From Ryuthela nishihirai (Eukaryota; Arthropoda; Arachnida; Araneae; Heptathelidae), in assembly GCA_038380435.1 (NCBI GenBank), contig JAWZYU010000020.1, forward strand, positions 45,912,307 to 45,976,306: DNA of 64,000 nucleotides, written 5' to 3'. The position numbers and the translations under genes are program-made. The notes under the pieces were generated by a model that ran no database searches, was not told where the DNA came from, and saw only the letters and a list, made by a program, of their open reading frames with translations. This document shows, in pieces, positions 3,218-52,610 of the stretch; the stretch's first letter is position 1; the number at the start of each line of letters is the position of its first letter.

Positions 3218-3400
3218 TCATCTGTGGCAGAGTGGTTATTGCACTTGTCTACTGATCTTAGGGACCTGGGTTCGAGCCCCGGTAAGGAATGGATGTACGT
3301 GTTGTTTTTCTGATGAGGTCCTGTCATCCTTACAGACCTTCTACTATAGCATATAAACTGACAGCTCCTGTCAGACCTCTGTGGCAAGCAGCTGCTTGAG
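3218..3400 (+). mobile_element. SINE1 (tRNA-headed), near full length
   Basis: A-box CAGAGTGGTTATTGC and B-box GGTTCGAGCCCC are followed by the family body: GAGGTCCTGTCATCC, CTTCTACTATAGCATATAAACTG, CTCCTGTCAGACCTC and CAAGCAGCTGCTTGAGG. Other copies lie at 8069, 9129, 11951, 14170, 21155, 33564, 45154, 48930 and 62546. There is no protein coding. Confidence 0.85.
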
Positions 3401-4570: not shown

Positions 4571-4615
4571 TTCCTGAATTCTGCTACCACGAAAAATTGC
4601 TTTTAATGTTTTGAA

Positions 4616-5245
4616 CAGAATTCTAACTTTTTCCACTTTTATATAAAATTATTAGACATCACACAGTCTTCGTGTATATAAAAGTAAAAGGTTAATGTTA
4701 CATCTTAGGTCATATACCTGGTTTTTCGCAATCAATAGAAGTCCTTATTCTTGTTTATTTCATATTGCACATCACTAGATGTTATACATACTAGTATCTC
4801 TTACACAGCTCCTGAGATAAATTGAAACACTTGCTGAAGAGTGCTAAACACCCAAAAGAACTTCTATACATTTCAAAATTACAATTTATCTTAACAAAAA
4901 TTACAGTAGAGGTTCACAGTGCAGTAATTAAAATTAAATTGAAATCTTTAATTCTCTATGAAAACTATTTAAAATTACTACTGTTAAATGTTTTTAGCAC
5001 TTCAACAAATGTTCTATACTATCAAGTATTAAAAGTTGTCAAGAGGAGAAACCCTTTCTCCAAGAGGAAGGAGACTTTATAGCATAGAACATTTGTTGAA
5101 GTGCTTAAAAACATTTTACAGTGTCATAGAGAATTAAAGATTTCAATTTAACTTTAATTTACTTAGCCCTTTACTTTCATATTACATGAAGACTGTGTGA
5201 TGTCTAATATTTTCTTATAAAAGTATAAAAAGGTTAGATATTCTG
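4616..5245. repeat. large foldback, left arm interrupted
   Basis: The right arm (about 5085-5245) is complementary to two separated blocks on the left. The inner block (about 4929-5018) includes TTGAAATCTTTAATTCTCTA and GCACTTCAACAAATGTTCTA. The outer block (about 4616-4699) includes TATTAGACATCACACAGTCT. The material between the left blocks (about 4700-4911) has no counterpart on the right, and part of it is LINE-A sequence. The spacer between inner arms is about 65 bp. Confidence 0.8.
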
Positions 5246-8068
5246 CAACATTAGAAACATATGGAACATAATTTCTTGCCTTTATATTCTAAATAGATAC
5301 TTTACAAAATTACCCAAGATATATTCATGTGGAGTTTTTTTAATGCTTAATGCTCAAAGGCAAATTAAAACAAACATTTTAAATATTTAATTGATATAAA
5401 AAAATATTTGAAATATTTGATTTTTACTTTCTCATGCTAAATATTCCCACTAACACAACAAAAAGAGATGCAGTTCTTGCAAGAATAAACAAAAAAACTT
5501 GCCTGGCAGGATATTTTGTTGCAAACAATTCTTTTTAATAATATAGTGGCACCTTTTGGTTAAGGAATGCGGAAGTTTTCCAAGTAACTCAATTTCTACA
5601 CATGGTTAAATACTTCAGTTAATTCACATATATTTGTAGGTTGTCTCTTATTCAACAGAGACTTTCTGCCAGAAATTTTCTATGGCAATGTTTTCTAAAC
5701 TGGGTTCACAAAGTTCAATTAGATCTGTACTTCAACACATTTCAATTTAAGCAATATCAAAATGCACAGTACTTAAACCTAAAAAATTGACATGCTTGGG
5801 GATCCACCAATTTACTGATTAAAAATGAGGATTTGCAGTCAACTAAAGTTTAAGAACTTCTGTTCTATATAGTTCAAATCTGAAGACGGGTCAGTTGAGG
5901 CAGCCACCTCTTATGGTGATACCAGTCTCATTATTCTTTCCCCACTGCCATCCTGAAATCTTCATCTGTAACATTTCCTCAGTATTCAGTTATAAACAAT
6001 TCTAAAAAACAAACATTTTTGTCTTTCCATAGGCCCTCAGCAGCAAACTCCTGACATATACTGGCAACATTATATCATTACAAATTTTGAGTGCTTGATT
6101 GTCCATTGTTGGGCTCTCCAATTTTAACTTATTAGGATATAATCTTACATAGACCCATTGTCAGTAATTAAAAAAAGATTATCAATAAAAAATAATTTTT
6201 CTCATTCTGCAATAGTTCATTGGCAATATTGCTTTGCCCACTGCAGTCTGTTTTTTCAATATATTTGAGACAGGAGGTTAAAGGATTCAACCACATACTC
6301 CACCAAAGCTTTCAGACCATACTTAAAGTAACTGAAGAATTAAACCTTCTATTTTTATGGTAGAGTTTTGCCAAAACCTTGTTTCTCCAAAGTATGGTGT
6401 GCTTTGGTCATTCTGCAAATGACACTCTTTGATGCTTTTGGTTTATGTCAATTAATGGTTCTTACAATCTGTCAATTTCTTACAGTTCACTTAACTAACC
6501 ATAATTCTGCTATACCAGTGTTTTTAAATCTTTTCTAATTCATGATCTGTGTAACATGTTACAAGATCTTGAAAAAACCCTATCTCTCCTATGTATAAAC
6601 ACACACAAAGCATACACAACACATAAAAATACATTTCCTCCTGATAAGAACACTAAGAATATGCCATTATATGTTATGATAGTTATAATGTGATCAAATT
6701 TTTGCTTGACAGCATTTTAACCTATCAAAACTATAAGAGTACCTGACAGAACCAGAGATACTGCTAATGCTTTTACAGAAAGATTAAACAAAAGGGTCAA
6801 CACACTATCTGGCATTGATATCAGAATAACTCATGTGTTGGCTTCACAACCTTAAAGTTGGAAGTGATGGTCACTGTTGTTCAAGTTGCAGAAAGAGCTA
6901 GAAGTCATGAAGAGACTGTTCATCACTCAATGGAAGTACATGGTGCAGGGGACATTAAATATGCAAAAAAAGAGGAATCAATTTGAATGACAAATTTCTA
7001 GGCAAAAAGTGAGGAGCTACCTAAGGTAGGAAAATGAAGGAAAGCAGGAGAATAGTACAAGGAAATTAAGAGAATGTTAGGTTTGATATCTTGGTTGACA
7101 AAAGAAGCTAAACAGCACGACTGAGCTTTACAGAGAAAATATTCTGTTAAAAAAAATCATTTTCACTGTTTTCCACCTTTCCCCCCACATGCACACATAA
7201 ACACAACAGCACCACACAAAATTTCCCACACTAATGTATAAAGTCCCCAACAATAAAACAAAACTCAAACTATATCCCCAACCTTAAAATTGTACCCTCC
7301 CCAACTTCTTAAGAGTGAACCACATGTACTACCACCCATCCCTCCACACAATGTGTTCCAAGCCTAATGTAAACATAGACCAACCACAGCATGCTAACAT
7401 CTGTGCCTGTCATAAAACAACTATTCCACCTGAAGATGTATTGGAGCAACAATGCAAAATGTTTAGCAAGTATGTATTAAAATATAGTATTCGCACTTCT
7501 GGAAAAGTTAGGACATAACTAATTTATTTTTAGATTTCCAGCTAGCTTTAGATTTTCAACTAATCAATGTCAACCTAGCACCAACATTCCTGCAAAGAAC
7601 AAAAAAAATCATGAACATATGTGAACTTATATCTGGACTGTATATCACCATAGGTCAATAGACCCATTCATCTACCCATTGGATATCAGCACAAGAAAAA
7701 AACAAGTTCCTACATAATAATTCCATCTAATTGTCTCAACTTTTCTGACAATACAGTGATAGAGAAAATTCAATAATTATGCTGATAATTTAACTCTGTT
7801 GGCAAATGGTATTCACAAGATGAACTCTTATTAAAGTTGTTGATAAGGCTAGTAATAGGATAGAATTTTCTTTACAATTATAATAAGCCTACGATTTACA
7901 CTTGATAGGTGGTAAAGTATTTCAGTTCCTTTAATGGTTACACTCTTGAAAGTTGCGCAACAGATTTTGGTTCGATTTGTTTGGCTTAATGGCACACCAG
8001 CAAGGCTTTATAACAAACAAAATATGCCAGATATTAGCAATGCACAATATGAAGCAAAATAAAAAAAT
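5246..8068. other. no gene seen (about 2.8 kb)
   Basis: AT-rich DNA, probably within the first Gdi intron. I looked on the minus strand for the second Gdi exon (residues after GTGLK) and did not find it. No SINE boxes or repeats shared with the rest of the window were recognised. Confidence 0.5.
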
Positions 8069-16340: not shown

Positions 16341-17239
16341 ACTAATGCTTTAGGACTTTAGGTCAGATATTCCACTGGGGGCAAATTCAAGTTTTACAAG
16401 GAAAAGCAACTGTTAGGAGCTCTCAGAGATGGATATTAATATTAGATGGTTTTATAGAAATATATCAGTATAAAAACTTGCAACTTCTATTAAAATATAA
16501 ATTTTATTTAATAATTTTAGTATAAGAAACGGTGTGTTTTTATAATCTAACTTTTCTTTACTTTCAGTACTACCATTATTTTTCTACAATATTTATTATG
16601 TTACAAACTAAAACCATATCTATATACTGTATAAGCCTTTACTGGATAGTGGTTAGGGAGCAAGTGACTGTTCCTGCACGGCAAACTTTGTGTGCTGTGT
16701 TGGTTCTAACTGAAGAAGTGGTCAGTAGTGACATTGGTCCTAATAGGCCTATACTTCTATGAGAAGGCTTGTAAAGAGTACTTGTAAGTTCTAGGATTCT
16801 TCTCTGTCTACATGTCGAAATGAAAAATATATATATATATATATCCACATTACCCTCCACTTAGCATTAGTTCGAGTATAGTGCCTATAAGTATAGTGTG
16901 GCATTCGCCTATTAAAACCTGGCAGAAAAAGTGTCACATACCAGTAGAGGGCGCTGGGAACGATATTCTTGCCTTGTTAACATTACCCTCTATGGGCGTT
17001 TCGCTTTTCAAAAACTTTCAAACATAAAGGCATTTATGCAATGAATTTACCATTCAAAGGCACATTATTCCTAAGTATTTTAACTGAACTAGTAAAACTT
17101 AGAGAACGCTTGAGCAAGTATATTTTTTTAAAACGAAGAAAATTGATGGCCATTCGATCAAAACAAACTGCATTCCTCTTTATGTATCAGAGCGCTGAAG
17201 TGATCGTTTTGATTGGCTCTTTGGTAAACTCTCCGAATG

Positions 17240-17525
17240 ACACGTGATGTAACATATGTTCTAACATGTGACATTTGGACTCGCCAATTGTAATAGAAGT
17301 CTTATGGCGTAGATATCCTTGTAAACTGCAAAAGAAAATTTAAAACGTTGTAATTGGCTAAATAAGAATGCAAGTTATTAGTATCATGATTATTCTTTCT
17401 TGTTTAGCCAATTATAACGTTTTAAATTGCTTTTTGAAATTTACAAGGATATCTATGCCAGGACTTCTATTACAATTGGCGAGTCCAAACGTCACATATT
17501 AGTACGTATGTTATTTGTCACATCT
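17240..17525. repeat. foldback 1 with 28-nt apex
   Basis: Arms of about 117 bp (17252-17368 and 17397-17512) are complementary with scattered mismatches, e.g. GGACTCGCCAATTGTAATAG on the left and its complement on the right. The apex at 17369-17396 is TGCAAGTTATTAGTATCATG followed by ATTATTCT. The same apex occurs at 17594-17621. Confidence 0.9.
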
Positions 17526-17559
17526 TCAAATTATAAAACATACTTCAAGTAATAAAAAT

Positions 17560-17658
17560 TTGAATTAACCGATAGGTTAGATCATTTTAATACTGCAAAT
17601 TATTACTATCATGATTATTCTGTATTAAAATGCTCTAACCTATCGATTGATTCAAAGT
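17560..17658. repeat. foldback 2 with the same 28-nt apex
   Basis: Arms 17560-17593 and 17622-17658 (around CCGATAGGTTAGATCATTTT and its complement) share no sequence with foldback 1. The 28-nt apex at 17594-17621 matches foldback 1's apex at 26 of 28 positions. Confidence 0.9.
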
Positions 17659-19487
17659 TTCATTACCCCCTGTCAACCCACAACCCCCACTTCACTACTC
17701 TGAATACACCAATTGGTCATAAACAGAATCCCAAAACCCCCTTACCCCTCCCTATAAGGAAAAAAAATTATGGTATCAAATATCCTTTAATTCACAAGGA
17801 ATACAGTTTGCACTGGACCCCTTCGAGTCTACTTCACTGCATTCCACTTCATTATTATCGCTTATCTAACTGGCTAACAACCATCTCCTTATCCCCATAT
17901 ACCTCATTTCACAACCCCATTAAATTAATGGCACATTTTAAAATTTTTAAGGGAATTAATTAAAGGTCCCCCTCCCCCTCTCCCCTAAAAATTCCATTTC
18001 TACAGTTAACTTCCTCCAATGCAATGGATTTAAAGAATATAAAAGTTCTATCTTAGCCTCTCCAGGGCACAAATTTCCACCCCTATTCAAGACCCCAGAC
18101 CCCTCCTTCCCCACATCATTAAAAATTTATAACTATCTCAATCCCATATCTTTAACTACAGTCCATCCCATTTCCTTGGTAGTTACGCTACGTTGTGTAA
18201 CGACGCAAGTGTCAATTATCGACACCAACTCACGGCATGTCCCACAACAAGCATTATACATTTCACCTTCCATCATGGAAGATATTTTAACTACTCCCCA
18301 CCACTCTCTAACACTTTTTACGACGTAGCAGCTTCCCTTTGCTTCTTTTTTTTTTCATTTTTCAACGAATCTAGGCGGCCTGTGAGCCATTAAGCCTAAT
18401 CACCGAAAGTGGGAAAACCAGCACTTTACGGTCCTAGTCCCGTCAGTCGTTGCTTACAGCGCCCAAAATTGAATTTTGCGATTGGACCAGATGATAAAGG
18501 GGCGGAAGCCCCTCTTAAAAAGTGGTCCAGGAAAGGATGAAGGATTGTTAAACTCTGTTACCATCTCGTGCTGAATGACACAGCATTTTATTACTGTTAA
18601 GTACTGGAACATAGGTCATGGAGTTGACAGGAACCAATAACAGCTTTACTGTACCCACAATGCAAATTAGACTTGAATGTTCTTAAACGTAAAAACAAAA
18701 CCACAGTAATATATTTATATTTGAGAAGAATCAAAAATTCCATATATTACTCTTAAAAATTCTCGTCTTAACTGCACTGTGCAAAAGAAAGTTGTTATAC
18801 TGAGAAAAATACTTTTAAAATTGTTCGTTGCAATCGTGAGGCTAGCGGTTCCTATCATTTCAAGATGCCGCATGCAAAGCACACCTTACTACATTAAGAG
18901 TACAACGGACGCGATCATGCCTTTTAGCCACGGCGAGCTGAATTTCTTACGCCAACACAGTATTCAGCAAGTTGTATTTGAAATTGTATTAAATGTCACG
19001 TGAGGTTAAATACGAGCAAATATAAACTATATAATTCTCTCCTTTCCATAACGTTAAACATAGCAACACTAAAATTTACAACCGCCCTGATACTTCTATA
19101 AACGATCAATTATGCTAAATAAATTAATTAAAGGTTTATTCACTTTATACTTACCAAATTAAAATGGATGTACAAATGGGATTTGTGAGGATGCCACCAG
19201 AATAAAACAATTTTTTATTATGTAAGCTAATTCTTAATATTTAAATTTCTGGAGGAAACTAACGAAACATTTTAGCTGCTTATAGAGTATCATGTTTTTT
19301 GATGCCCATAATGTTTCGCTATTTAATTTTTTATGTAGAACTACTTTTATTCTTATCTAGAACTACTTGAGGCGGAGTAATTTGGCGTAAAACGGTACTA
19401 TATCAATATCTTTTCACTGCGCATGTACGAAGTTATTATGCTAGTTCCCCTGTCCGTTGGGGACCAATATTTGGACCACTTTTTAAT
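17659..19487. other. no gene seen; one shared palindromic motif at 18482-18530
   Basis: 17659-18140 is C-rich on the plus strand with many CCCC words. At 18482-18530, GGACCAGATGATAAAGGGGC and TTAAAAAGTGGTCC form an imperfect palindrome that repeats the motif at 12705-12752 in opposite orientation. No coding signal recognised. Confidence 0.5.
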
Positions 19488-20075
19488 GGCTATGTTATTG
19501 AGGATTGCCACACTATTACTTATAGGCACTATAGTTTGGGTAAACCCATTGAGGTAGTATACTAGAGACAGGACTCAATTCCCATAACATTGGCAGCCAT
19601 GATCACAGTAGGATGTGCGTGCAGATTGTTTAAGAAGGCAAGAATACCCATGAGGCCTTGCGAATGGCTGGTAAACGACGATGAATGAACGACGACAAAA
19701 TGTTCGAAATGAAGCAGAACTTTGCTGTTTTTCCTTTCTTATTTCAATGAGGTTATTTCAGTGTATAACTAAAACAACAAACTAGATTTAATTAATACAC
19801 ACTTACTGATTTATATCGGATGAAATGCGGAAATGCTGGAAACTGCTTCTCCTTCAAATTGAGGTTTTGTATGAAAATTTAGGAAAAATTCGATATGCTC
19901 TTAATATGTGATTAAAGCTGAACTAAATTGACTGTAAACTTAGCAGACTTTGATCCCGTTTAAAACAGGGACAATGGTAAACATATTTTAAAATCTAATA
20001 CATGATCAAATCTTTTAACTTAAGCAAAACTCCGCAAAATTTAGAGATTTCAACTGTGCACATCCGAGCCTCATT
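19488..20075 (+). repeat. repeat family A, copy 1
   Basis: Matches 27525-27975 in inverted orientation over about 430 bp (e.g. GAAGCAGAACTTTGCTGTTT, AACTGCTTCTCCTTCAAATT, GACTTTGATCCCGTTT). Its left part (CCCATTGAGGTAGTATACTA, GCCATGATCAC) matches the complement of 36232-36295. No open frame; class unknown. Confidence 0.75.
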
Positions 20076-22437: not shown

Positions 22438-22671
22438 GAAGCCAACGGCAGTACCAATCTGAAAACACCAGTTCTCGTCCGATCACCAAAGTTAAGCAGC
22501 TTTGGGTGTGGTCAGTATGTGGGAGGGTGACCACCTGGGAACACCGTGTGCAGTTGGAAAAAAATCTGCCGAGAACCCGCCATCCTCACAGATTCTTCCA
22601 CTATGGCATATTGAACTGACAGGCTCCTGTCAGACCTCTGTGGCAAGCAGCTGCTTGAGATATTTTTTTAG
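22438..22671 (+). mobile_element. 5S-rRNA-headed SINE sharing the SINE1 body
   Basis: 22441-22557 is 5S-like: starts GCCAACGGCAGTACCA and includes AGTTAAGCAGCTTTGGG (A box/intermediate element) and GGGTGACCACCTGGGAACAC (C box). From about 22563 it continues with the SINE1 body: CATCCTCACAGATTCTTCCA, CTCCTGTCAGACCTCTGTGG, GCAAGCAGCTGCTTGAGA. A TAAATTA duplication flanks it (22431-22437 and 22672-22678). So the tRNA head of SINE1 is replaced by a 5S promoter. Confidence 0.85.
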
Positions 22672-22761
22672 TAAATTACTTCATTTATACTTTACTTTGG
22701 TATACATATATACTATGTTTGAACTCGGGCTAAGTTTTCATCTCTTTGAATTCATAAAAAT

Positions 22762-38752: not shown

Positions 38753-38973
38753 AGTAACAAATCAGCACTTTAGCGTCGATTTAAATCTTAGAGGAAAAAT
38801 GGTCTTGAGCCAGGTGGGATACGAACCCACGAACCCCTGATAACATGTCAGGTGCTCTGGACCACTGAGCTACCGGCAGCCGATCAAGATCTCTAATTAG
38901 AACATTCTGGCATGTAAGTAATGTAATTTTTCCTCTAAGATTTAAATCGACGCTAAAGTGCCGATTTATTACT
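38753..38973. repeat. foldback with tRNA-like centre
   Basis: Arms 38753-38800 and 38926-38973 (48 bp each) are complementary with two mismatches, e.g. TCTTAGAGGAAAAAT and its complement. Between them, on the minus strand at 38805-38880, is a tRNA-like sequence with A box TAGCTCAGTGGTCCAGAGCA, a 5-bp anticodon-like stem around CATGTTA and a T arm GTGGGTTCGTATCCCAC. The arms are not part of the tRNA. Confidence 0.9.
38805..38880 (-). tRNA. tRNA-like sequence (probably pseudogene or SINE core)
   Basis: Folds as D-arm (AGCTCAGTGGTCCAGAGC), anticodon stem CCTGA/TCAGG with loop CATGTTA (anticodon position TGT), and T arm GTGGG/CCCAC. The acceptor stem has only about five pairs (GCCGG/CTGGC) and base 33 is A rather than the nearly universal T, so a functional tRNA-Thr is unlikely. 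Confidence 0.35.
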
Positions 38974-41204: not shown

Positions 41205-41600
41205 TGGGTTGTTTTACCTCTGAATGGTATTTTTTTGCACACCCTGGGCTAAATGGCCAGGTCACAAGGACCCCAAAGACTCAGAGAAGGTTGGGGGAGG
41301 GGACCCACTGGAACAGATGGTTGCCTCCCGTCAAAGTCATCCAGCATGTTAACGTGCACCGTCTGTTGGATGGGACGTTAAGCCGTGGCCCTGTGTATGG
41401 CTCTCCCATACACAGGGCCACGGCTTAACGTCCCATACAACAGATGGTGGCCTTTCCAAGCCCATTAACGTCCCCTACTGACCATGGTCAGGGAGGAGAG
41501 TTTTGTGGAGATAAGTCTCAACACTAACCCAGCTGGGACTTGAACCTGGGAACTGCAGATTACAAGCCTGGAGTGCTACTGACTGAGCCGCCCCTGCCCC
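41205..41600 (-). mobile_element. SINE2, full length, with 9-bp target duplication
   Basis: CCACATTAA at 41196-41204 and 41601-41609. The reverse-oriented element runs from GGGTTGTTTTACCTCTGAAT to GACTGAGCCGCCCCTGCCCC and includes the B box (GGACTTGAACCTGGGAAC). A 38-bp inverted duplication (41363-41443) has been added internally. Confidence 0.9.
41363..41443. repeat. 38-bp inverted duplication inside SINE2
   Basis: Arms 41363-41400 and 41406-41443, one mismatch, 5-nt spacer (CTCTC). Other SINE2 copies have only the right-hand arm sequence (CACGGCTTAACGTCCCAT), so the left arm is a local copy in reverse. Confidence 0.95.
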
Positions 41601-51362: not shown

Positions 51363-52610
51363 TTAACCTTTAAGTGTGGTAAACTGATTAGTTTTCAAAA
51401 TCACTACAAACTTTTTTATGCTTTTTTTTTCCTTTTAATTTTTACCTGTTTTCCTATTGCTTTTTTGCTAATCGTTTTGTAGATTTGTCAAAACAGTTGT
51501 TACACCATAACTTTCAAACACGATGAGCAAACTTAATGATAAATTTTTCTGATCTACCTTCAGAAAGCATGGGCTACAGAAAGTAAAGGGCTATGCATCA
51601 AATGAAAATTTGTGACATGGGGAGTGTTACAGGTTATAAAAATTCTTCCTTCTTTCCACCTTAAAAAACGAGAAATATTAAAACGTTTGTTCCATTATAT
51701 CTTTGGAATGCAAGGACCAAAAGTTGCAGGCTATGCGTGAAATGAAATCTTGTGACATGGAGAGTATTTACATGTTATAAAAATTTCCCCCTTCTTCCTC
51801 TCTCCCTCCCTAAAAAGGGAAATATGAAAACAATTGTTCTGCTATATCTTCAGAACACGAGGGCTGAACATAATGAATTGTATATCAAATGAAAACTTGT
51901 GACAGGTAATGTTATGGCCCTTGATTTCTTCTCTTCTAAAAAGGGGGAAATGTGAAAGTCATTCCACTACATCTTCAGAATGCAAGGACCACACTTACGA
52001 GTTAGATGCTAATTGGAAGCTCATGTGAGGACTTTCATAGACTGCTTGGAATTATGTCCCCCCATTATTCTCCTCTACCCAAAAAGGGGATGGAACCTTA
52101 ATGAGCTATATCTCAAAGCTTATGACATCTACAATGTCATGTGCTACCTCATACACAGCTTCAGAAAAAGGGAGCAGAAAAATGTGGCTGATGTTTATTA
52201 GTCATATCAATTAAAGGTTTTTTAATGTAAGTGCTTTTAGTGACAAAAATATTAATAAATTTAAAAATACCTCTATATGTTCCCTAAATAGTAGAAATCA
52301 GTGGTGTCAGTCATTGAATTTCTATTCACTTCAAAAGAAGATAGGTTGCTGATTTACCAACACCATATCTCTATTGATTGCCAGCATCATATCTTCCTTT
52401 GAAGTGAATATGAATTCAGTGGCTTATTACACCATCTATGTGTTTTAGGTTTATTTTCTACTTTTTAGGGCAAAGATTTGTCAAATTTATTATTTGTTTT
52501 TTGTTCCGAATGAAATGCTTTTTCTTTTGATGTCTAATATGAATTATTTCATTAGTTGCTTCATAATAAACCTTAGAAATTGAATTTTTAAAGAAAACCT
52601 TGGCGTTATA
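51363..52610 (+). repeat. repeat family B, long copy containing a tandem array
   Basis: The left end (TTAACCTTTAAGTG, TAGTTTTCAAAATCACTACA) matches the left end of the 225-bp copy at 20288-20520, and 52450-52610 (GAATGAAATGCTTTTTCTTT, ATTTCATTAGTTGCTTCATA) matches its right half. Between them sits the 130-bp tandem array at 51488-52160. The shorter copy may be an internal deletion of this longer form. Confidence 0.55.
51488..52160 (+). repeat. tandem array, about four units of 125-195 bp
   Basis: Units start near 51488, 51681, 51827 and 51954. Each carries a TATATCTTCAGAA(C/T)GCAAGG-like block, ATCAAATGAAAACTTGTGAC and a pyrimidine-rich stretch before AAAAAGGG. Units differ by 15-30%. Confidence 0.7.

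What the first reader, a model, noticed from the sequence alone, without database searches (positions are those of the whole stretch)
17240..17658. Two neighbouring foldbacks with unrelated arms share the same 28-nt apex
Seen directly: foldback 1 (arms about 117 bp) and foldback 2 (arms about 35 bp) lie 60 bp apart. Their arms share no sequence, yet the unpaired centre is the same 28 nt (17369-17396 and 17594-17621, 26 of 28 identical), with arms starting immediately on each side. Ordinary foldback transposons share arms and differ in loops; this is the reverse. Inference: the 28-nt unit may be an insertion or replication-stall core around which flanking DNA is copied in inverted orientation.
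Basis: seen in the sequence. Interest (0 to 1): 0.78.

Follow-up and report, generated by a model that had tools for sequence, protein, structure and literature searches.

The report
Twin foldbacks sharing one loop
Two neighbouring DNA hairpins in an animal genome have unrelated stems but the same 28-letter tip, most simply read as the scar of one DNA break whose two ends each folded back on themselves, though this could not be confirmed without a genome-wide search.

Summary
FB1 (arms 17250-17368/17397-17513, 104 of 119 alignment columns identical) and FB2 (arms 17549-17593/17622-17666, 40 of 45) carry the same 28-nt apex in direct orientation (26 of 28), while their arms are no more alike than shuffled sequence. 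Among 153 pairs of foldback loops (18 loops of 15 nt or more) from the window plus 252 kb of the same assembly, 8 pairs share a loop; 7, from two repeat families, also share arms. FB1/FB2 is the one exception. The core occurs only twice in the window and was not found in the sample.

My preferred reading needs one core, not a mobile one: a staggered break with 28-nt overhangs in an ancestral A-core-B' sequence, each end folding back at the core edge, then end joining. It predicts that the pre-event allele lacks exactly 17397-17621. This is inference: FB2 shows no priming microhomology and no relative was available. Rivals (loop copied into a second hairpin, two TA-flanked foldback elements, a dispersed core) stay open because the genome search did not complete (22 tries).

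The parts
17250..17368 (+). FB1 left arm (A); taken as the original left flank of the core in the preferred model
   Evidence: the repeat finder I1 and I2; aligned with the reverse complement of 17397-17513, 104 of 119 columns identical. TA at 17250-17251.
17369..17396 (+). core copy 1, 28 nt, apex of FB1
   Evidence: unpaired centre in the DNA fold, apart from one isolated pair in the minimum-energy structure
17397..17513 (-). FB1 right arm (A'), inverted copy of A; taken as new DNA in the preferred model
   Evidence: TA at 17512-17513.
17514..17548 (+). x, 35 nt between the foldbacks; filler in the preferred model. 17520-17557 is an imperfect 19-nt tandem pair that runs into the start of FB2's arm; the first bases can be aligned as a gapped continuation of A'
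17549..17593 (-). FB2 left arm (B), inverted copy of B'; taken as new DNA in the preferred model
   Evidence: 40 of 45. TA at 17550-17551.
17594..17621 (+). core copy 2, 28 nt, apex of FB2, direct orientation to copy 1 (26 of 28)
17622..17666 (+). FB2 right arm (B'); taken as the original right flank of the core in the preferred model
   Evidence: TA at 17664-17665.

Best explanation
One break, two foldbacks. The ancestral DNA read A-core-B' with a single 28-nt core. A staggered double-strand break left the core as a 3' overhang on both ends (top strand on the left end, bottom strand on the right end). Each overhang turned back at the border of the core and was sealed to, or extended along, its own duplex, so the left end became A-core-A' and the right end B-core-B'. 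The two extended ends were then joined through a short filler x. Because the two ends are treated the same way under 180-degree rotation, both cores end up in direct orientation, each keeps only one original flank, and both sets of arms begin at the same core edges. Shown: the architecture, the direct orientation, the unrelated arms, divergences that do not differ detectably. Inferred: the break, the overhang, the order of events. Prediction: the pre-event allele equals the window without 17397-17621 (225 bp), with one core between A and B'.
For: One event gives the order arm-core-arm, short gap, arm-core-arm, with direct cores (26/28 direct, 11/28 inverted) and coinciding edges on both sides. 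Arm divergence in FB1 and FB2 does not differ, nor arms from core (Fisher p 1.0 for 15:102 against 5:40; 0.75 for 20:142 against 2:26; the 15:102 is a rounded input, the BLAST alignment has 15 differing columns of 119), as expected if all copies were made together; with so few sites this is weak. The 3' end of core 1 has a 5-nt complement at the A/core border (AGAAT at 17365-17369, read). Apex sharing without arm sharing is the exception here (1 of 8 loop-sharing pairs, the other 7 coming from two families), which suits a one-off accident better than a repeat family. In yeast, break ends fold back on a short inverted microhomology with a 41-nt loop and add inverted copies of 2 to about 150 bp, most under 14 bp, captured by end joining (PMC11724301, passages).
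Against: FB2 has no priming microhomology: the longest complement of its 3' end near the border is 1 nt, so it would need sealing of the overhang to the recessed 5' end, which is inference. In FB1 the 5-nt complement is 4 nt out of register with the observed arms and needs one small slip. The cited yeast mechanism extends one end only and its products are mostly much shorter than FB1's 117-119 nt; extension of both ends was not found in the passages read. A 28-nt stagger is long. No ortholog or paralog without the insert was available, so the ancestral junction is not shown. The TA at both ends of both foldbacks is not explained by this model except as chance.
Confidence: 0.38

Rival explanations
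1. Loop transfer. Two foldbacks arose separately; one of them broke at its tip, and repair copied the exposed 28-nt loop of its neighbour into the gap (templated insertion, polymerase theta or microhomology-mediated repair).
For: The donor would be 225 bp away; short templated insertions at breaks are documented (start of the abstract of PMC8421209 in the listing; PMC11724301 passages). Core divergence (2 of 28) is not larger than arm divergence. That foldback tips are fragile is recalled.
Against: Needs two independent foldbacks and a copied tract whose ends coincide with the edges of the donor loop, which no step of the model forces unless only the loop was single-stranded.
Confidence: 0.2
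2. Two foldback (MITE-like) elements with TA target sites that share a central module but have different terminal arms.
For: Both foldbacks begin and end at a TA (17250-17251/17512-17513 and 17550-17551/17664-17665). Foldback repeat families are common in this genome: among the 25 foldbacks found in 202 kb, arms recur between loci L004, L010 and L022 and between L007, L011, L015 and L016 (by reading; pair scores), and window 52309-52424 belongs to the second group.
Against: In the 7 other loop-sharing pairs, which come from two families, the arms are shared too (one of them, L007/L015, only just above the threshold). No copy of either foldback's arms in 252 kb of the same assembly at E 0.05 except one 46-nt match of 72% to FB2 (E 0.011). 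TA is frequent in DNA of 33% A and 33% T (composition).
Confidence: 0.18
3. Dispersed core: the 28-nt unit is a repeated insertion, nicking or replication-stall site, and each copy provokes an inverted copy of local flank.
For: Both copies have arms starting at the same core positions on both sides.
Against: Only two cores in the window, next best 19 of 28 without foldback; none in 252 kb sampled (no exact 14-nt piece in the first 202 kb); no exact 28-mer in viral contigs or genome contigs (these collections do not cover animals). With none in 252 kb, up to about 12 copies per Mb remain possible (rule of three, my arithmetic).
Confidence: 0.14
4. Functional hairpins: the loop is conserved by selection (protein binding site or RNA loop) and the stems keep pairing while their sequence drifts.
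For: Of the 11 bases next to the core, 7 match; on the left side the two differing bases (17366, 17368 against 17591, 17593) are each paired within their own foldback, read from the alignments.
Against: Stems of 119 and 45 nt are far longer than a recognised loop should need, differ at 11-13% of positions and share nothing beyond about 6 bases. No Rfam family matches here at gathering thresholds.
Confidence: 0.06

Closest known systems
Foldback inversions (short inverted duplications) at double-strand breaks, yeast (PMC11724301 passages; PMC10622511 abstract)
   Same: A loop of tens of nucleotides flanked by a copy of one flank in inverted orientation; inverted copies of 2 to about 150 bp.
   Different: There one end is extended at pre-existing inverted microhomology and most copies are under 14 bp; here both ends would be extended, with the same loop in each and almost no microhomology at FB2.
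Short-range replication template switching that creates hairpins (PMC8794818 passages)
   Same: Creates near-perfect inverted repeats from one local flank in one step.
   Different: The passages seen concern rRNA stems with small loops (4 nt enriched); a single event as described makes one hairpin and does not duplicate its loop.
LIMP and HyLIMP palindromes of the Lobosphaera incisa mitochondrion (PMC4524435 passages)
   Same: Palindromes with an invariant loop.
   Different: LIMP stems are repeats of one pentanucleotide in all 19 copies, and the loop is 7 nt and occurs in both orientations; here the stems are unrelated and two copies are known.
Foldback transposons and foldback MITEs (class recalled; families of this genome seen)
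   Same: Long inverted arms around a short centre, TA at the ends.
   Different: They share arms among copies; these two do not, and no further full copies were found in the sample.

Membership tests
Foldback transposon / MITE family | Several copies in the genome that share terminal inverted arms | tested here: inconclusive
   No further copy of FB1's arms in the window beyond 21-23-nt matches at E 0.38, and only weak matches to FB2's left arm at E 0.12-0.33; none in 252 kb of the same assembly apart from a 46-nt 72% match to FB2. The whole genome could not be searched.
Foldback transposon / MITE family | Target-site duplication | tested here: inconclusive
   TA at both ends of both foldbacks; TA is frequent by chance in this sequence.
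Foldback transposon / MITE family | FB1 and FB2 as members of one family: shared arms | tested here: not met
   8 of 8 arm comparisons at shuffle level, p 0.39-0.88.
Break-induced foldback inversion | Inverted copy of local flank next to a loop | tested here: met
   Arms begin at the core edges on both sides in both foldbacks. Which arm is the original is not shown.
Break-induced foldback inversion | Inverted microhomology at the fold-back point | tested here: not met
   FB1: 5 nt but 4 nt out of register with the arms; FB2: 1 nt.
Break-induced foldback inversion | Pre-event allele without the inverted copy | not testable with these tools
Invariant-loop palindromes (LIMP type) | Many dispersed copies with the same loop | tested here: inconclusive
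   Two in the window, none in 252 kb.
Structured RNA family | Match to an Rfam covariance model | tested here: not met
   No hit at 17240-17670 at gathering thresholds (3 hits elsewhere in the window).

The most novel reading that the evidence does not exclude
The 28-nt unit is the overhang of one staggered break whose two ends were both sealed or extended as hairpins, and genomes carry a class of such twin foldback scars: neighbouring inverted repeats with unrelated arms and one shared loop equal to the overhang. Such scars would record, to the base, the overhang of ancient breaks and could be counted in any genome.
Probability: 0.15. Interest if true: 0.75.

Novelty: new variant of a known kind. 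Interest (0 to 1): 0.42.

Why it matters
Many inverted repeats in animal genomes have no assigned origin. If a twin foldback with a shared loop is the footprint of one break with both ends folded back, its loop gives the overhang and its arms give the length of fold-back synthesis, so germline break repair could be read from assembled genomes. If instead the core is dispersed, it would be a new kind of foldback-provoking site. Either way a search for neighbouring foldbacks with equal loops and unequal arms would tell.

Tried and rejected
Rejected: artefact of assembly or amplification (arms are 11-13% diverged). Chance. FB1 and FB2 as members of one arm-sharing family. Any model that puts the second core in inverted orientation: 26/28 direct against 11/28 inverted. 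A tandem S - inverted S - S amplification: it requires the reverse complement of x and B' to the left of A; FB1's arms end before that. A single viral contig hit to a 20-nt piece of the core shows no flanking foldback when read by eye and is taken as chance. A possible larger element between 16877 and 19533 was looked at: the left flank does not continue the repeat that flanks the right end (best alignment score 13.5, low-complexity), so no empty site was seen.

Led nowhere: literature searches (no paper; one unrelated paper). Searches (15 of 18 papers listed) listed no paper that I recognised as describing neighbouring foldbacks with a shared loop and unrelated arms. Four papers were opened: passages of PMC11724301, PMC8794818 and PMC4524435, abstract and outline of PMC10622511. 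The library lacks most subscription journals.

The identity of 205 of 225 for the predicted product is inflated, because x (35 nt) was taken from the window itself; it is not used as evidence.

Full report
What is there. The window is animal DNA, mostly 29-44% G+C per 2-kb step, with an ORF that I read as gag-like (no Pfam match) before one with a CCHC zinc knuckle, a Tigger-like ORF for which the 8 hits that name an organism, of 20, are all arthropods, a 5S rRNA match and two tRNA-Thr matches. It lies in an assembly with contigs of 155, 122 and 117 Mb. At 17250-17666 there are two foldbacks. FB1 has arms 17250-17368 and 17397-17513 around 17369-17396; FB2 has arms 17549-17593 and 17622-17666 around 17594-17621. 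FB1's arms are identical in 104 of 119 columns, FB2's in 40 of 45. The centres are identical in 26 of 28 positions in direct orientation and 11 of 28 if one is inverted. The predicted DNA folds are -95.8 and -27.6 kcal/mol with z-scores of -19.2 and -10.8.

Is it more than chance? The core pattern with up to 3 mismatches is matched twice in the window and never in 100 shuffles. Foldbacks themselves are not rare here: 10 score 18 or more in the window and 25 in 202 kb of the same assembly, while 8 block-shuffled windows reach at most 15. What is unusual is the sharing. In 316,000 bases (window plus 252 kb; L001, the viral hit, left out) 42 foldbacks score 16 or more, 18 of them have a loop of at least 15 nt, and of their 153 pairs 8 share a loop (score 14 or more). 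Seven of the 8 also share arms; they are not independent, 6 coming from one family of four loci and 1 from another, and one (L007/L015) passes the arm threshold only just (15 against 14). The eighth is FB1/FB2, arm score 7.5. Arm comparison of FB1 and FB2 in 8 combinations is at shuffle level (p 0.39 to 0.88, 300 shuffles each), and identity in register beyond the core is 11 of 30 on the left and 9 of 30 on the right. Just next to the core 7 of 11 bases match (binomial p about 0.03 at a match rate of 0.32), so the true edge may lie a few bases further out.

Is the core repeated? Within the window the next best matches are 19 of 28, and none of the listed matches of 18 or more is flanked by a foldback (flank pairing 9 to 16 of 30 against a mean of 11.9 and a maximum of 19 at 2000 random places; FB1 28 and FB2 27). 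In 252 kb of the same assembly nothing matches the core, the arms of FB1 or x at E 0.05; FB2 has one 46-nt match of 72% at E 0.011 in L006. An exact 14-nt piece of the core is absent from the first 202 kb. Exact scans of viral contigs and genome contigs found no 28-mer, but those collections are viral and prokaryotic. The sample is a small part of the genome: none in 252 kb leaves up to about 12 copies per Mb possible (rule of three, my arithmetic).

How it most likely works. Four facts need explaining together: the arms are unrelated, the cores are direct, both core edges coincide in both foldbacks, and the two lie 35 nt apart. If the core had been a longer direct repeat on which two foldbacks formed independently, its similarity should run on into a flank; beyond a few bases it does not. 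A single original core explains this. In A-core-B', a staggered break leaves the core as a 3' overhang on each end. Each overhang folds back at its border and is sealed or extended: the left end becomes A-core-A', the right end B-core-B'. Joining A' to B through x gives the observed order, and equal treatment of both ends gives direct cores. The left foldback then keeps the original left flank and the right foldback the original right flank. All copies should be of one age; the observed divergences do not differ (Fisher p 1.0 and 0.75), with little power. Yeast data show the single-ended version: a resected break end folds back with a 41-nt loop and is extended by polymerase delta, inverted copies range from 2 to about 150 bp with most under 14 bp, and end joining captures the product (PMC11724301, passages).

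What speaks against it. Fold-back priming in that system uses inverted microhomology. FB1 has a 5-nt complement, but 4 nt out of register; FB2 has 1 nt. The model then needs sealing of the overhang to the recessed 5' end, which is inference. FB1's arms are near the upper end of the lengths seen in yeast. The ancestral junction was not seen in any relative. Both foldbacks also start and end at a TA, which would suit TA-targeting foldback elements; foldback families are common in this genome, although TA is frequent in such AT-rich DNA.

Comparison with known kinds. Works like: break-induced foldback inversion and short-range template switching (PMC8794818, passages; PMC10622511, abstract). Membership is not claimed, because the microhomology feature was tested and not met and the pre-event allele could not be sought. 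Invariant-loop palindromes are known in the Lobosphaera incisa mitochondrion (PMC4524435, passages), but their stems are one repeated pentanucleotide.

Verdict. The interpretation as a recurring core is not supported by the limited search possible. I favour a twin foldback scar from one break (0.38), with loop transfer, foldback elements and a dispersed core as live rivals.

Noticed in passing
window 52309-52424: Foldback that belongs to a dispersed repeat family with matches in sampled loci L006, L007, L011, L015 and L016 (foldbacks at four of these, L007, L011, L015, L016).
   Followed up: partly
L004:9456-9643, L010:5687-5907, L022:8534-8753: A second foldback repeat family with long arms containing TACAGTCGCTCAAAAAAGTATCCGAACACTAT; L004 and L010 have similar loops, while in L022 the pairing runs on to a 4-nt loop.
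   Followed up: no
window 16877-16933 and 19477-19533: Inverted pair with a sharp outer edge (TATAGTGCCTATAAGT), 2.6 kb apart, enclosing the finding; possible termini of a larger element, with no match in 252 kb.
   Followed up: partly
window 38753-38973: A tRNA-Thr match (38806-38879) sits inside an inverted repeat with 48-nt arms, 96% complementary.
   Followed up: no
window 22441-22724: A 5S rRNA match (76 bits, 22441-22559) is followed directly by a repeat module (from 22565) that recurs in the window, for instance at 3309, 8036, 11952, 21162 and 33668; possibly a 5S-headed SINE.
   Followed up: no
window 41357-41449: Palindrome of 44-nt arms with a 5-nt loop inside a repeat unit; 100 BLAST rows in the window and sampled DNA, self included, 12 shown.
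   Followed up: no
window 4598-5259: Inverted-repeat stretch with two nested inverted pairs (4926-5159 and 4991-5110).
   Followed up: no
window 16941-16954: CCAGTAGAGGGCGC resembles the CTCF motif as I recall it; not tested.
   Followed up: no
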